Positions 21,653 to 28,645 of a stretch of 55,054 nt of DNA are shown in pieces; within the stretch, counting starts at the first letter, position 1; every line of letters starts with the position of its first letter. Below the pieces are notes generated by a model. It was given only the letters and a program-made list of their open reading frames with translations, made no database searches and was not told the origin of the DNA. Origin of the DNA: Acidobacteriota bacterium (GTDB taxonomy: Bacteria > Acidobacteriota > Terriglobia > UBA7540). The stretch is from positions 1-55,054 of the forward strand of contig QHZN01000086.1 in assembly GCA_003225365.1 (NCBI GenBank), read 5' to 3'. The translations under genes were made by a program, and so were the position numbers.

Positions 21653-23917
21653 ATGCTTTTAGACTTGAGTTTGGCTGCCCTTCTCTTGCCTGTCATTTTC
21701 GCAGGAATTGCGACTTATCGACACTGGGACAATCTCCGCGAGTGGGCGGGAAAGATTAACTCTTACTTCCTTCCTCCCGGCCGGCCTTCGGGAGGGATTC
21801 TCCTTCCGCTTTTTTTCGTCAGCGTGAGCTCGCTGTACCTCGAGATAATGCTGATCCGCTGGGTCGGCACCGAGGTGCGCATTTTCGCCTATTTCCAGAA
21901 CTTGGCGCTGATTGCTTGTTTTCTGGGCTTTGGTCTCGGGTGCTACTTTAGCAAGCGGCGTATTAACATCCTTTTCTCACTGACCGCCGTCACCGCGCTG
22001 GTAGCTCTTGTCAAGGCCCCGTTGAATCTGTGGCAAATCATTTTGACCATGACATCCAGCCTGCTGTCCGGTTCCCCAGACGCGGTGATGTGGGGAGGCG
22101 TGCTGCCAGAGTTGAGGACAGACACGATAGTTCTGGCCTCGATTGTTGCCATTGTCGCGGTAGGGCTCTTTCTGACTTTGGCTATTCTGGCCATGATTCC
22201 CGTCGGCCAGTGGGTGGGGTACTTTCTCGACTCTGCCCCCCAGCCCCTCACCGCCTACTCCGTGAACCTGTTAGGCAGTTTGGTAGGGATATGGTTGTTC
22301 GCGGTGCAATCCTACTTCTGGCTCCCTCCCAGCGGTTGGCTTGCCACCGCCTTCATCCTGCTCGTGCTATTCCCTCGATCTTCTTGGCGAATGAAGTTGG
22401 CGGTGGTGGTTCTGTTTGGGGCAGCTTTAGGGTTGCTCGCGGCCGGAGGGGGCGCTCAGGCGGGGACTTTCTGGTCGCCCTATCAGAAGATCGAGGTCGA
22501 CAGTCATGGGGACCAGCAGTATGTGCTCAAGGTAAACAGCACGAATTACATGAGCATTGCGAACGGGACGCCCGCTTATATGGCGAAACATCCCCAACTA
22601 GCTGCGGTGTTCGAGCAAGTGAGTTCTTATGACGCGCCGTATCGCTTCGCGGCACACGCGGCAGACGTCCTGATTGTCGGTGCCGGAGCCGGCAATGATG
22701 CCGCGGCCGCACTGCGGCACAGGGCACTGAGCGTGGACGCGGTTGAAATCGACCCGGTGATTCTGCACCTCGGTATGGTTCTGCATCCGGAACAACCCTA
22801 CTCCTCCTCCGGGGTGCATCCGATTTTAACTGATGCGCGCGCCTTCTTGCGCGGCTCGAAGCGGAATTACGACATGATCATTTTCGGTTTATTGGATTCC
22901 CACACGGAGTTTTCCGACTTCAGCAACGTGCGCATCGACAACTACGTTTACACCGAAGAGTCTTTGCGGGAGGCCCGGCGACTTCTTAAGCCGGAAGGCA
23001 TCCTTGTAGTCAAGTTCGAGGTGCGTCCACCCTGGACGTGGATCGGCCAGAGGCTATACGCAATGTTGGAAGAGGTCTTCGGCCGGCCGCCTGTGGTTTT
23101 TTATGCGAAACCCATCGGGGGGTATAATTCCGCAAGCGTTTTCATCACCTCAAACGACCCGGACCTTTGGCGTCGCGCCAAGGAGCCACTGCTGGCTTCG
23201 CTGGTACAGACCAATCCGCCGCCCTTCCCGGTTTTGTTGGAAGGGTCCCCTCCGCTGACGACGGACGACTGGCCTTATCTCTATCATCGCAGCCACTCGG
23301 TTCCACGGACTTACTGGACGGTGTCGCTGATCCTTCTGATTGTGGCATTTCTTTTTGCACGCCCGGCATTCCAGCCCCGAAGCCCGGGCACATGGCATTT
23401 TTTCTGTCTCGGTGCAGGGTTCCTGCTGCTGGAGACGCAGATGGTCTCACGGCTGGCGCTCTATTTCGGGACCACTTGGCTTGTCAATTGCATCGCTCTT
23501 AGCGCCATCCTCATGGTCCTCGTGGGCGCCAATCTCTGGGTGCTGTGGCTTCGTCCTCAGAAGTTGACGGTTTATTACGCCCTGTTGATCGTGAGCTTGC
23601 TCGCCAACTACGCGACGCCTTGGGAACTATTCCCCTGGGGTGTGCGAACCGTGGGAATCCTGTTGACAGGCGCCTTTGGAGTGTCCGTATTCTTGGCTGG
23701 AGTCATCTTCGCGGGCGTCTTCAACCTTGCGCCACAGCGGTCAACAGCGCTCGGGTCGAACCTCGTCGGGGCGGTGGTGGGAGGCTTGGCGGGAAACTTC
23801 TCTTTCATTGCCGGCCTGAAAACGCTCCTCATGATAGCCGCCGTGTTTTACGGAGCAGCCGCAGTTTTCGGCCGGCTCGATCGCGACGGGGAGGCTGAGA
23901 CGGAACTCGAACGGTGA
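21653..23917 (+). CDS. Membrane protein with an internal spermidine-synthase-like domain
   Basis: The protein has 754 residues. Residues 1-265 contain about seven membrane segments (one carries SSLYLEIMLIRWVGTEVR, a feature of membrane spermidine-synthase-like proteins). Residues about 275-510 form a SpeE-like Rossmann domain: VLIVGAGAGNDAAAAL is the SAM-type loop, followed by VEIDPVILHLG, LTDARAFLRGS and YDMIIFGLLDSH. A second membrane block of about six segments covers 550-740. Such proteins are often annotated as fused MFS/spermidine synthase; whether they make polyamines is not established. In motif LLDSH the usual catalytic Asp is present. ATG 21653 is weakly supported by a GGAGG 13 nt upstream. 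Confidence 0.85.
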   Translation: MLLDLSLAALLLPVIFAGIATYRHWDNLREWAGKINSYFLPPGRPSGGILLPLFFVSVSSLYLEIMLIRWVGTEVRIFAYFQNLALIACFLGFGLGCYFSKRRINILFSLTAVTALVALVKAPLNLWQIILTMTSSLLSGSPDAVMWGGVLPELRTDTIVLASIVAIVAVGLFLTLAILAMIPVGQWVGYFLDSAPQPLTAYSVNLLGSLVGIWLFAVQSYFWLPPSGWLATAFILLVLFPRSSWRMKLAVVVLFGAALGLLAAGGGAQAGTFWSPYQKIEVDSHGDQQYVLKVNSTNYMSIANGTPAYMAKHPQLAAVFEQVSSYDAPYRFAAHAADVLIVGAGAGNDAAAALRHRALSVDAVEIDPVILHLGMVLHPEQPYSSSGVHPILTDARAFLRGSKRNYDMIIFGLLDSHTEFSDFSNVRIDNYVYTEESLREARRLLKPEGILVVKFEVRPPWTWIGQRLYAMLEEVFGRPPVVFYAKPIGGYNSASVFITSNDPDLWRRAKEPLLASLVQTNPPPFPVLLEGSPPLTTDDWPYLYHRSHSVPRTYWTVSLILLIVAFLFARPAFQPRSPGTWHFFCLGAGFLLLETQMVSRLALYFGTTWLVNCIALSAILMVLVGANLWVLWLRPQKLTVYYALLIVSLLANYATPWELFPWGVRTVGILLTGAFGVSVFLAGVIFAGVFNLAPQRSTALGSNLVGAVVGGLAGNFSFIAGLKTLLMIAAVFYGAAAVFGRLDRDGEAETELER

Positions 23918-24045: not shown

Positions 24046-24492
24046 ATGCCCATTGAATCAGGCGCATTCCGCCGGCCACTCGCGCAAGAGCTAATTTCGC
24101 GGGGCGTCCGGATGACGCGCCGGCGGCGTCTGCTGGTCGAGATTATTCAGGGCGCCGAGCGCCACCCCGACGCCGTCTCCCTGTGGCAGCGGGCCCGGGC
24201 GCAAGATGCCACACTCAACAAGGTCACCGTTTACAGGACACTCGGCATGCTCAAGCGACAAGGGTTGGTGGACGAACTCGACCTCATGCACCTGGAGGGT
24301 GAAAAGCACTTTTACGAAGCCCGGCCGACGCGCGACCACATCCATCTGGCGTGCATCAAGTGCGGGCGCATCCAGGAATTCGAGAGTTCTCTGTTCGAGA
24401 AGCTCAAGGGCCAGATCGAGCGCGAGCGCCGCTTCCGCATTGAGGTCGTCCGGGTCGAGGCGGGTGGCTATTGCGACCGCTGCCAGGAGTGA
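24046..24492 (+). CDS. Fur-family transcriptional regulator
   Basis: This 148-residue protein has a winged helix at about 15-85 (VRMTRRRRLLVEIIQ, LNKVTVYRTLGMLKRQGLVDEL) and a metal-binding dimerisation half with HFYEARPTRDHIHLACIKCGRI and YCDRCQE, giving the two CxxC structural zinc sites of Fur/Zur/PerR relatives. The regulatory-site His residues in RDHIHL are present. Which metal or peroxide it senses cannot be decided. GAGGG lies 7 nt before the ATG. It converges on the large transporter fusion gene; no siderophore genes are adjacent. Confidence 0.92.
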   Translation: MPIESGAFRRPLAQELISRGVRMTRRRRLLVEIIQGAERHPDAVSLWQRARAQDATLNKVTVYRTLGMLKRQGLVDELDLMHLEGEKHFYEARPTRDHIHLACIKCGRIQEFESSLFEKLKGQIERERRFRIEVVRVEAGGYCDRCQE

Positions 24493-24526: not shown

Positions 24527-27500
24527 TCAAGTGAGATGTCGCGTCGCTTCGTAGGCCGGCAAGTTATCGGCTTCCATATTCTTTTGCCGCAACCGGTGCG
24601 TCAGGATTTTGAAAATGCTGAAGGCGATCTGCGGGCGTTCGTGAATGAGCTCCGCGAAGCTTTCGCGGTCGACCTTTAGCGCCAGAGTTGGCTCGAGCGC
24701 GCGGATGGAGGCTGAGCGCGGCTCGTCGTCAAGGATGGCCATTTCGCCGAAGAACTCCCTTTCACCTAGCACCGACAAGGGCTGCTCGGTTGCATCCACG
24801 CGCCGGAAGACTTCGACCTTTCCCTCAACGATTACGTAAAGGTGGTGCGCCTGCTGGCCCTCCTCGAAAATCACCTCGCCGGGCTTGAATTCTTTTTCCA
24901 GTGTGATCTCAGCCAAGGCGGCAAGCTCTTCTCCCTCCAGACTTGCAAAGACCGAAACGGACTTCATGAAGACCGCTTTTTCTACGGTGAGGAGCATGGA
25001 ATCCCCTTTCTCGCGTAATTTCAGGAGCCCGGAGGCTCCCTCGACCCGTTCCGCCTCAATCCGCCGCGCGCATCGAGCCAGGCGGGAGTCCGACGACCGC
25101 GCTGCGAAATCCACTTGCGGCTGCCAGGAATCCGCGAAGGCGCGCCACCCCGCATATAGCGCCGCCTCCCGAACGACCGGCTCTCTGTCCGCCAGAAATC
25201 CGAGAAGCATGCCCCTTCCGTCTGCACCGGGATTTGAGCCGAGATAGTTCGCGGTCAAGGCGCGCAGCCAGGCCTTGGGATGATGCATGAGCTCATCGAG
25301 CGCGCGCGCCGGCTGACCGGCGGACGTGGCGCCGCGAGGGAGCGGTGGAGGCTCCAGGATGGCGAGCATTTCCTTCCCTATTTTCTTCGGGGCCAGATTG
25401 TCCAGGGCTTCCAGGGCGTCCGCGCGTCCCGCGTGCGCGGGATCGGCCGAGCGGAGCTGTTCGAAGATGGATTTCATGCGGTCATGGCCGCAGAGGATGC
25501 CGAGAGTCCTGAAGACCCTCTCCTCAATATTAAGGCGGTCTTCTTCCAGAGCCTCCGCCAGAATGCGCTCGCTTTCGTTTTCGGGGTGGGGAAGGAGCGC
25601 GCGCGAAATAGCCTGGCTTCGCCGGAAGGACGTCAGCTCGCTGTGCGCGTAGTCGAACAAGGCGGCGCGGGCGTTTTCGGGGAATGCGCCCGAGCGGCTG
25701 AGCCGGCCGAAGGCCTTGAGCACCTTCCAGCGGACCCTCCACTCCGGGTCCGGTAGCAGTTTGATGAGCGTGTCGAATACTGTCGGACCGCTTAACCGGC
25801 CCAGAACATCGGCGAGTTCGCTGCGGATTTCAGCGCGTGGCGTCTCAAGAGCGGCGCGGGCAAGCTCTTCGGTCCCTTGGCCGCCGCTGCGTTCGACGAT
25901 CTTGGCAATGGCGCGACGCGCATCGTGCCGCAGCTCGCCGGCGCCTCCCAACGCCTCGATGAGCGCAGGGAAAACCCGCGGCGTCCCGACCCGGCGGAGG
26001 GCCTTGGCGGCCTCACAGCGGATTCTCAATTCAGGATCCTTGAGGAGGGGGGCGAGAAGGTCCATGGACTGTTCGACGGGCAGGCGTGCCAAGGCGTAGA
26101 TCGCAGCAGAGCGAGCTTCGCTGTCCCCGTGCGCTAACTCCGTGATGGATGGTATCCAGTCAGGAGCAGCCGAAACACCCTCGAGGGCCGTGATTGTCAG
26201 CAGCGAATTCACCCGCGCCCGCACGGCGGGGTCTCTTAGAAGCGGCATAATCTTTTCTACGATGTTTCGGTCGCCCGCTTTGTGCAAAGCCTCAACCGCA
26301 TTGGCGCGCACGCGCGGGTCAGTGTCCGCGAGCAATGACGTGATGGGCTCGATGTGCTTGTCAGGTCCCAAGCGCCCGAGCGCGGCGGTGGCGGTGGCGC
26401 GCACGCGGGCGTCGGGATGGAGGATGAGCCCAGCAATTCTATCTGCGGCATCGCTCGTCGCAAGCGTTTCCAGCAACTGAATGGCGGTCACTATTTGCTC
26501 GGGATCCTCAGAGCTCAATGTCCGGAAGAGGATGGAAAGGCTCGAAGGGTCTTTCATCTTGCTAAGCGCGGCCGCAGCCGACTGGCGTAAGGTCGGGCTG
26601 CTGCCCTTCAAGTTGAGCAACAAGGCTCGGATATAACCCCTTTTTGCCGTTGTGGCGACAACCAACCAGGTGGCGGCAAGCAGGACCGCTCCCCAGGAAA
26701 CCTGCTGGCCAACGGCAAACTCCCGCTCGCCGATGGTCACGGGCTTAAGGAACCGCTCGCCGAGGAATATCAGGCCGCCCGATGCCGCCAGGGACATCGG
26801 CCGGATGTAGCCCTCGATGAAGCCGCGAATACGTGCCCGGCGCTCGAGGGCGATGGGGTTGTAAAGAAGTTGGTACGAGGAATCGGAAAAAGTGTAGAGC
26901 ATGGTGGCGTCGGCGAGCTTGGTGCTGAAGACCGACGGAAAACCATAGGACGCGCTCATCCACGATAGGCCCAGCACCAGGCAAGCGGGGTGAAAGTTTA
27001 TGGTAGTCCCCACGCCCAGGCGGGCGATGATCGAACGGGTAAGGAGAACTTGTACGGCAAGGCAAAGAAAGCCCTGTAACCCGCCGAAGTGCCCAAGAAA
27101 TGCCGTCAGCTCGTCCGTCTGCGGATACTGGGCCTTCACAGTCTTGTTGAAATAGAAATCCACCACGGAATAGACCGTCCACATCAGCAGGATGTAGCCT
27201 CCCATGGACTGCAGCAGGGGTTCCCGCTTTATTTCGCGGAAGCCGGCGCGAATCTTCTGCCATTCGGAAGGCCGGACGGCAGGGACTCGGGAGGCGGTGC
27301 CTGTTTTGACTGCGTCGGGGACTTTTGGATAGGTGCGATAGGTGGTGGCGGCCGGGAGCCATGCCGCAAAAATCAAACCCGCCCAAACGACCATGACGTT
27401 TTCGGTCCCAATAGCGACGATAACCTTCTTGCATGTCAATCCGACACTGATCATGCCCAAAAGCGCACCCACAGCGAGAAAAGGGAACAGTCGCTTGGCC

Positions 27501-27940
27501 TGCCGCGTGTCGAACAAGTCCCCGGCAAACGTCCAGAACTGCATGAGTGAGAAGTACCAGGTAATTTGGGCGAAAACGTAAAGGACGGGATAAAAATAGC
27601 GCGGATGCCCGAACAGGATCACCCGGCTGACAAGCAAGCCGGCGATGAAAATCATGGAAATGCCGGTCCGAAGCTTGCCGCGGTCCATCCGGTCCGCCAG
27701 AAAGGAGTAGGCGACGGAGCAAAGCACTAGGAAAAGGGCGTTGAAGAAATACATGATGGGGAGGTATTGAATCCCGAACTTGCTAAAAAAGAGGGAATCG
27801 CGGGCGCTCCGGCCGAAGGTGATCCCGGCGTTGAGAAACAGATTGACGAGCAAACAGAGAGCCACCACACGGCCCTCGCCGGGGTAGATGGGGGCGATTC
27901 GGGCCAGCCAAAGCTTCATTCGCGAAGAGGGCACGGTCAT
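24527..27940 (-). CDS. Npt-like MFS transporter fused to HEAT repeats and a cyclic-nucleotide-binding domain
   Basis: This is a 1137-residue three-part protein. Residues about 20-430 contain ten to twelve membrane segments resembling the ATP/ADP antiporter (Npt/Tlc) branch of MFS proteins (GITFGRSARDSLFFSKFG and YSFLADRMDRGKLRTG). Residues about 440-960 are a HEAT/PBS-lyase-type alpha solenoid with recurring DPDxRVRxxAxEAL patterns. Residues about 985-1110 form a cNMP-binding domain: FKPGEVIFEEGQQAHHLYVIVEGKVEV and the phosphate cassette FFGEMAILDDEPRSASIRA with its conserved Glu and Arg. The layout suggests transport gated by a cyclic nucleotide through the solenoid; this is an inference. 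The transported substrate is unknown. The ATG at 27940 follows GAAGG with no spacing; GTG two codons on is an alternative. Confidence 0.87.
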   Translation of the reverse strand: MTVPSSRMKLWLARIAPIYPGEGRVVALCLLVNLFLNAGITFGRSARDSLFFSKFGIQYLPIMYFFNALFLVLCSVAYSFLADRMDRGKLRTGISMIFIAGLLVSRVILFGHPRYFYPVLYVFAQITWYFSLMQFWTFAGDLFDTRQAKRLFPFLAVGALLGMISVGLTCKKVIVAIGTENVMVVWAGLIFAAWLPAATTYRTYPKVPDAVKTGTASRVPAVRPSEWQKIRAGFREIKREPLLQSMGGYILLMWTVYSVVDFYFNKTVKAQYPQTDELTAFLGHFGGLQGFLCLAVQVLLTRSIIARLGVGTTINFHPACLVLGLSWMSASYGFPSVFSTKLADATMLYTFSDSSYQLLYNPIALERRARIRGFIEGYIRPMSLAASGGLIFLGERFLKPVTIGEREFAVGQQVSWGAVLLAATWLVVATTAKRGYIRALLLNLKGSSPTLRQSAAAALSKMKDPSSLSILFRTLSSEDPEQIVTAIQLLETLATSDAADRIAGLILHPDARVRATATAALGRLGPDKHIEPITSLLADTDPRVRANAVEALHKAGDRNIVEKIMPLLRDPAVRARVNSLLTITALEGVSAAPDWIPSITELAHGDSEARSAAIYALARLPVEQSMDLLAPLLKDPELRIRCEAAKALRRVGTPRVFPALIEALGGAGELRHDARRAIAKIVERSGGQGTEELARAALETPRAEIRSELADVLGRLSGPTVFDTLIKLLPDPEWRVRWKVLKAFGRLSRSGAFPENARAALFDYAHSELTSFRRSQAISRALLPHPENESERILAEALEEDRLNIEERVFRTLGILCGHDRMKSIFEQLRSADPAHAGRADALEALDNLAPKKIGKEMLAILEPPPLPRGATSAGQPARALDELMHHPKAWLRALTANYLGSNPGADGRGMLLGFLADREPVVREAALYAGWRAFADSWQPQVDFAARSSDSRLARCARRIEAERVEGASGLLKLREKGDSMLLTVEKAVFMKSVSVFASLEGEELAALAEITLEKEFKPGEVIFEEGQQAHHLYVIVEGKVEVFRRVDATEQPLSVLGEREFFGEMAILDDEPRSASIRALEPTLALKVDRESFAELIHERPQIAFSIFKILTHRLRQKNMEADNLPAYEATRHLT

Positions 27941-28001: not shown

Positions 28002-28184
28002 TTACTCGTTCCGGATGGCCGCCTTGACCATGGCCAGGATGGAGGGTGGAATGTTCTTCGCGGGCATGCCGTGGTCCTTCTCGGCGTGGTCGGACGCGAG
28101 CTTGAGCAACTCATCTTCGGTCTCGGCGCGGATTTCCTTGGAGCAATCGAGTCCCAGGTCGCGACAGCGCAAGACTTTGGGCAT
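28002..28184 (-). CDS. DUF1059 small protein (60 aa)
   Basis: The short protein matches DUF1059: it starts with V-L-R-C-R-D and continues LDCSKEIRAETEDELLKLASDHAEKDHGM. The two conserved Cys and the HAEKDHG are the family signature and could bind a metal. The function is unknown. GGGAGG lies 5 nt before the ATG, so translation is well supported. It is divergent from the PilZ gene. Confidence 0.85.
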   Translation of the reverse strand: MPKVLRCRDLGLDCSKEIRAETEDELLKLASDHAEKDHGMPAKNIPPSILAMVKAAIRNE

Positions 28185-28300: not shown

Positions 28301-28645
28301 ATGGAGGAGCCGAGTGTCCAAAACAGGCGTCATCCGCGCTATCTCGCTGATCTCGAAGTGATTATTTATCGTCAAGAGGATGCAATTCGCGCCCACATCG
28401 CACAAATCAGCCGCGGTGGCTGCTTGATCTTTCCCCCCTTGCCCGACCCGGCGGCGTCCCAGCTCAAAATGTCCTTCCGCCTGGGAGAAGACCTCCCATA
28501 TACCAATTGCAAGGGGGAGGTTGCCTACAGTATCAACGACCGGGGAACGGGTGTGGTGTTCACGGAAATCTCGCGATACAACCAGGATTTGATTACGGAT
28601 TATTTTGAACGACGGCTGGCCGCCCAAAAGCAACCTGGCGCCTGA
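28301..28645 (+). CDS. PilZ-domain protein
   Basis: The 114-residue protein is a single PilZ domain, the common cyclic-di-GMP receptor. NRRHPRYLADLEV gives the RxxxR motif (residues 9-13) and HIAQISRGGCLI the [D/N]xSxxG-like motif with Gln replacing the acidic residue at its start. The C-terminus is a helix. It may respond to cyclic-di-GMP and act on the signalling or secretion genes downstream; this is an inference from position. The promoter lies so close that the mRNA may be leaderless. Confidence 0.82.
   Translation: MEEPSVQNRRHPRYLADLEVIIYRQEDAIRAHIAQISRGGCLIFPPLPDPAASQLKMSFRLGEDLPYTNCKGEVAYSINDRGTGVVFTEISRYNQDLITDYFERRLAAQKQPGA

What the first reader, a model, noticed from the sequence alone, without database searches (positions are those of the whole stretch)
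24527..27940. Transporter, HEAT solenoid and cyclic-nucleotide domain in one 1137-residue chain
The nucleotide-transporter-like MFS part, a long HEAT solenoid and an apparently intact cNMP-binding cassette suggest a transporter gated by a second messenger. Which ligand passes and which messenger gates it are unknown.
Basis: partly seen in the sequence, partly recalled or inferred. Interest (0 to 1): 0.62.

Follow-up and report, generated by a model that had tools for sequence, protein, structure and literature searches.

The report
Nucleotide-transporter-like protein with cyclic-nucleotide sensor
A soil Acidobacteria-group bacterium carries one long membrane protein that joins an ATP/ADP-transporter-like part, a long helical arm and a well-preserved cyclic-nucleotide pocket; the layout is real, but this family, and the idea that cAMP controls it, were published in 2017.

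Summary
The 1137-codon ORF at 24527-27940 (-) encodes an NTT (ATP/ADP-translocase, MFS-fold) domain, about 30 HEAT helices and a C-terminal cNMP-binding domain. Pfam supports all three parts. AlphaFold models of the transporter part match the solved NTT structures best (TM about 0.78). It is not an assembly error: eight full-length orthologues from separate MAG assemblies keep the same order. The phosphate-binding cassette (FGE...RSA) is invariant in these orthologues but degenerate in many split paralogues, and is the only canonical cassette among five Pfam-detected cNMP domains in its genome, which also holds a class III cyclase with an adenylate-cyclase-like motif set. The architecture is not new: Major, Embley and Williams (2017) described NTT-HEAT-cNBD fusions, recurrent fusion and fission, and proposed cAMP control. 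My additions: residues essential for ATP/ADP exchange in AtNTT1 are substituted here (K155 to R, E245 to Q, E385 to D, K527 probably lost), so ATP/ADP exchange should not be assumed; and the gene follows a DUF1059 gene and converges on a PerR/Fur-type gene, as in relatives. Ligand and gating are untested. Verdict: a new member of a known, uncharacterised family.

The parts
24527..27940 (-). NTT-HEAT-cNBD fusion protein, 1137 aa
   Evidence: ORF and translation; orthologues
26606..27919 (-). NTT / TLC (ATP/ADP translocase family, MFS fold) domain, residues 8-445, about 12 TM helices
   Evidence: PF03219 27 bits; AF2 pLDDT 89.5 and Foldseek best hits AtNTT1 and C. pneumoniae NTT1, TM 0.74-0.78
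24986..26605 (-). HEAT-repeat solenoid, residues 446-985, about 30 helices
   Evidence: PF13646 152.8 bits, PF02985 79 bits; AF2 helices 449-977
24566..24973 (-). Cyclic nucleotide-binding domain, residues 990-1125
   Evidence: PF00027 90.9 bits; phmmer to PKG, PKA and CRP structures; Foldseek to CRP-cAMP, rmsd 1.7
24710..24751 (-). Phosphate-binding cassette FGEMAILDDEPRSA, residues 1064-1077 (Glu1066, Arg1075)
   Evidence: Invariant F, G, E and R, S, A in the orthologues; only canonical cassette among five in the genome
28002..28184 (-). DUF1059 small protein gene (60 aa), same strand, 61 nt upstream of the fusion gene; probable operon partner
   Evidence: PF06348 60.1 bits; same position in L034, L036, L038, L039 and the end of one in L035
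24046..24492 (+). PerR/Fur-family regulator, convergent with the fusion gene
   Evidence: PF01475 83.4 bits; 76-82% identical orthologue downstream in L035, L036, L037, L038, L040 and L044

Best explanation
It is an NTT-HEAT-cNBD fusion protein of the family described in 2017. Shown by computation: a 12-helix NTT/MFS-fold membrane domain, a long HEAT arm and a cNMP domain with a canonical, strictly conserved phosphate-binding cassette in one chain. Inferred: the arm and sensor lie in the cytoplasm; cAMP, made by the cell's class III cyclase(s), binds the sensor; the HEAT arm relays the change to the membrane domain and alters its transport of a probably phosphorylated, anionic solute. Strict ATP/ADP exchange is doubtful because the residues required for it in AtNTT1 are replaced.
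For: Domain hits. AF2 models and Foldseek put the membrane part with NTTs ahead of all other MFS and the cNBD on CRP-cAMP. Cassette residues G1065, E1066, R1075, S1076, A1077 are invariant in nine orthologues down to 36% identity, while split-paralogue cNBDs often lose E and R, so the pocket is under selection in this clade. It is the only canonical cassette among the five PF00027 proteins of the window's genome; the same-genus genome G001 also shows only this one. The genome has two PF00211 cyclases; L062 shows, by eye, a D, K-D, D, N-R motif set as in adenylate cyclases and matches CyaB/CyaC. The cNBD is fused, or is the next ORF, in most distant relatives, with at least 3 label changes forced by well-supported branches: conserved gene order indicates joint function. 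Precedent for a CNBD controlling a secondary transporter: SLC9C1 (PMC6052114).
Against: I found no binding, transport or localisation data for any member. A canonical cassette does not prove binding or tell cAMP from cGMP. AlphaFold gives one static state and pTM 0.70, so the relay path is not shown. Several Myxococcota homologues have no adjacent cNBD within the DNA held, so the module may be dispensable in some lineages. The NTT part could be a receptor or scaffold that does not transport.
Confidence: 0.5

Rival explanations
1. The membrane part no longer transports: it is a membrane-anchored receptor or scaffold in which the cNMP-bound sensor and HEAT arm recruit partner proteins to the membrane.
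For: HEAT arrays are protein-interaction modules; the four AtNTT1 transport residues map to R47 (S in one orthologue), Q125, D261 and L384; AtNTT1 K155R nearly abolishes nucleotide binding and E245K transport (PMC3306366).
Against: Many membrane-domain residues are strictly conserved in the clade (Q297, G309, H317, P318, R146, K149, R150), and two of the four positions keep their charge sign; this looks like a working, altered transporter more than a dead one. The K527 mapping is uncertain.
Confidence: 0.25
2. A true ATP/ADP or nucleotide exchanger whose activity is tuned by cAMP to energy state, as proposed by Major et al. 2017.
For: NTT fold with the solved ATP/ADP exchangers as best structural match; published proposal.
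Against: E245 to Q and probable loss of K527 in the whole clade; TIGR00769 score far below its cut-off.
Confidence: 0.2
3. The cNBD is structural only or binds a different ligand, so no cyclic mononucleotide gates the protein.
For: Many CRP/FNR-fold domains, including several in these genomes, lack the cassette; many paralogue cNBDs are degenerate.
Against: The cassette is invariant in this clade.
Confidence: 0.2
4. Assembly or gene-calling artefact joining separate genes.
For: In paralogues the cNBD is a separate next ORF.
Against: Eight full-length co-linear fused orthologues in separate MAGs, plus Armatimonadota, Latescibacterota, Gemmatimonadota and Neomarinimicrobiota fusions.
Confidence: 0.01

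Closest known systems
NTT-HEAT-cNBD fusion proteins (Major, Embley and Williams 2017, Genome Biol Evol 9:480, PMC5381601)
   Same: Same three domains in the same order; separate-next-ORF and fused forms; uncharacterised; cAMP control already proposed there; Acidobacteria among the phyla with NTTs.
   Different: The paper stresses Cyanobacteria, Chlamydiae and oomycetes; its main text does not analyse cassette residues, NTT transport residues or neighbours of the acidobacterial clade.
Plastid and chlamydial ATP/ADP translocases (AtNTT1, C. pneumoniae NTT1; PDB 9j3j-9j3o; Pfam TLC PF03219)
   Same: Membrane-domain fold (TM 0.74-0.78 to the substrate-bound forms) and weak sequence similarity.
   Different: 14-16% identity; K155, E245, E385, K527 replaced by R, Q, D and a non-basic residue; HEAT and cNBD added.
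SLC9C1 (sperm Na+/H+ exchanger with voltage sensor and CNBD, PMC6052114)
   Same: Works-like analogue: a secondary transporter carrying its own cNMP-binding domain in one chain.
   Different: Unrelated transporter fold (Na+/H+ exchanger type), voltage sensor instead of HEAT arm; not homologous as a whole.
CRP, PKA and PKG cNMP-binding domains
   Same: Fold and phosphate-binding cassette.
   Different: Attached to a transporter, not to a DNA-binding or kinase domain.

Membership tests
NTT-HEAT-cNBD fusion family (Major et al. 2017) | NTT domain (PF03219) at the N-terminus | tested here: met
   27.0 bits, over the cut-off of 21; fold search
NTT-HEAT-cNBD fusion family (Major et al. 2017) | HEAT repeats (PF13646/PF02985) directly after the NTT domain | tested here: met
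NTT-HEAT-cNBD fusion family (Major et al. 2017) | cNBD (PF00027) fused at the C-terminus, or next ORF in relatives | tested here: met
NTT-HEAT-cNBD fusion family (Major et al. 2017) | Falls in the monophyletic NTT-HEAT clade of the 2017 tree | not tested
   The paper's alignment was not available; only a tree of the homologues found here was built
ATP/ADP exchange NTT (AtNTT1/Npt1 type) | NTT/MFS fold | tested here: met
ATP/ADP exchange NTT (AtNTT1/Npt1 type) | Four charged residues K155, E245, E385, K527 | tested here: not met
   R47, Q125, D261 and L384 at the aligned positions; K527 mapping is tentative
ATP/ADP exchange NTT (AtNTT1/Npt1 type) | NCBIfam TIGR00769 cut-off | tested here: not met
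   36.1 vs 387.2 bits
ATP/ADP exchange NTT (AtNTT1/Npt1 type) | Transports ATP/ADP | not testable with these tools
   Needs an uptake assay
Canonical cNMP-binding domain (CRP/PKA/PKG type) | Beta-barrel plus helices fold | tested here: met
Canonical cNMP-binding domain (CRP/PKA/PKG type) | Phosphate-binding cassette with Gly-Glu and Arg | tested here: met
   FGEMAILDDEPRSA, invariant residues
Canonical cNMP-binding domain (CRP/PKA/PKG type) | Binds cAMP or cGMP | not testable with these tools
   Needs a binding assay

The most novel reading that the evidence does not exclude
In this genus the fusion protein is the main or only protein receptor for cAMP in the cell, so that second-messenger signalling acts directly on a membrane transporter of altered, non-ATP/ADP specificity rather than on transcription: a bacterial cNMP-gated MFS transporter.
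Probability: 0.15. Interest if true: 0.6.

Novelty: new member of a known kind. Interest (0 to 1): 0.3.

Why it matters
If the sensor gates transport, this would be a bacterial secondary transporter under direct cyclic-nucleotide control, a mode known mainly from SLC9C1. The family is broad, reaching oomycetes, and a form without the cNBD occurs in Chlamydiaceae (PMC5381601); I found no functional work on it in the library searched. The conserved cassette against degenerate paralogues, and the residue swaps in the NTT part, make the question testable with two point mutants.

Tried and rejected
Assembly or gene-call artefact: rejected by recurrence. Other MFS family: rejected, NTT structures rank first. 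Canonical ATP/ADP exchanger: not accepted, signature residues not kept. cAMP versus cGMP preference from sequence: not decidable; best hits are PKG and PKA alike. Paper searches for AtNTT1/Npt1 structure articles and for later functional work on NTT-HEAT proteins in the open library found none. No model coordinates were available to look at the cavity. The regex gave one clear false match (L131) and matched an earlier stretch in L068; these were read by eye. The deep branches of the homologue tree contain long branches and were used only for the fused/split count. Promoter and terminator scans near the gene gave nothing convincing.

Full report
OBSERVATION. The ORF at 24527-27940 (-) is real: 1137 codons from ATG to stop. 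Pfam finds the NTT/TLC family (27.0 bits, cut-off 21), HEAT repeats (152.8 bits) and the cNMP-binding domain (90.9 bits, cut-off 27.5) in that order. NCBIfam's NTP/NDP-exchange model matches with E 3.6e-9 but far below its curated cut-off, so the transporter part is a divergent member. AlphaFold gives a confident full-length model (pLDDT 83.8, pTM 0.70) with about 12 membrane helices, about 30 HEAT helices and a cNBD barrel. The NTT part alone models at pLDDT 89.5 and pTM 0.88; its four best PDB matches are the solved chlamydial and plastid ATP/ADP translocators, at TM up to 0.78, ahead of every other MFS protein. The cNBD overlays cAMP-bound CRP at 1.7 A.

NOT AN ARTEFACT. Fourteen of 41 genomes searched (the window's own included) carry a homologue at E below 1e-30; eight full-length orthologues, mostly from the same family, are fused and co-linear over the whole chain at 36-60% identity, and the same-genus copy is cut only by contig ends. 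The collection scan names the hosts as Acidobacteria group 13 / Terriglobia MAGs, and finds fused homologues in Armatimonadota, Latescibacterota, Gemmatimonadota, Neomarinimicrobiota and a proteobacterium. In distant paralogues, including one in the window's own genome (contig C131), the cNBD is usually the next ORF. On a tree of the NTT domains the fused and split states are clustered but changed at least three times. Multiple fusions and fissions at this point were already reported in 2017.

SENSOR. The cassette FGEMAILDDEPRSA has the glutamate and arginine that bind the ribose and phosphate in CRP/PKA-type domains (established knowledge). Gly1065, Glu1066, Arg1075, Ser1076 and Ala1077 are invariant in the nine aligned orthologues. 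In many split paralogues both are lost. Of five PF00027 proteins in the window's genome (about 92% complete) only this one has both residues; the two CRP-like regulators, a histidine kinase and the split paralogue lack the pair. The sister genome G001 looks the same. Other genomes of the family have further canonical cNBDs, so this is a feature of the two genomes of this genus only. The genome has two class III cyclases; L062 (cyclase-TPR-HD) shows a complete adenylate-cyclase-like residue set by eye and matches CyaB and CyaC, while L061 has His where the catalytic Arg is expected. So cAMP is plausibly made and this protein is a leading candidate receptor; both steps are inference.

TRANSPORTER. 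AtNTT1 residues K155, E245, E385 and K527 are required for transport (PMC3306366, PMC4256464). Numbering the PDB chain by an offset of 84, which I derived by matching the E245/E385 spacing, the alignments map them to R47, Q125, D261 and, less surely, L384 with R/K380 one turn before. The K155 match rests on a low-scoring stretch but on a shared RxxxD pattern. Q125 and D261 are invariant in the clade, whereas most distant Myxococcota homologues keep Glu at the E245 position, which supports the alignment. In AtNTT1, K155R nearly abolishes nucleotide binding, and E245K nearly abolishes transport. I conclude that ATP/ADP exchange should not be assumed and that the solute is unknown, perhaps another anion.

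NEIGHBOURS. A 60-aa DUF1059 gene (28002-28184, -) lies 61 nt upstream on the same strand; homologues sit at the same place in L034, L036, L038 and L039, and the end of one in L035. A PerR/Fur-family gene (24046-24492, +) converges on the fusion gene in the window and in six relatives at 76-82% identity, about 2 kb away in L037.

COMPARISON. Major, Embley and Williams (2017) described this architecture, its split form, its recurrent fusion, and the cAMP hypothesis, with no functional data; I found no later functional study in the library searched. SLC9C1 is the proven case of a secondary transporter controlled by its own CNBD. I therefore file the protein as a new member of the NTT-HEAT-cNBD family, not as an ATP/ADP exchanger.

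VERDICT. Anatomy and family are near certain (about 0.95). The specific mechanism, cAMP-tuned transport, stands at about 0.5.

Noticed in passing
28002-28184 (-): Small DUF1059 gene directly upstream of the fusion gene, conserved in position in relatives; a likely operon partner.
   Followed up: yes
24046-24492 (+): PerR/Fur-type regulator convergent with the fusion gene, 76-82% identical in six relatives, a hint of a link to iron or peroxide stress.
   Followed up: partly
L004 3-1382 and 1330-1812 (own genome, contig C131): NTT-HEAT paralogue whose cNBD is a separate overlapping ORF with a degenerate cassette; another NTT-HEAT piece lies on contig C78.
   Followed up: partly
L044 5533-6279 and 6228-8813: Orthologue in genome G007 is broken into two overlapping ORFs inside the NTT domain: frameshift, pseudogene or assembly error.
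   Followed up: no
21653-23917 (+): 754-aa protein with many hydrophobic stretches around a weak spermidine-synthase domain (PF01564, 23.9 bits).
   Followed up: no
L062 844-2892: Class III cyclase fused to TPR repeats and an HD domain in the same genome as the window.
   Followed up: partly
28301-28645 (+): PilZ-domain gene divergent from the DUF1059/fusion genes, with histidine kinase and LuxR-type regulator genes beyond it.
   Followed up: no
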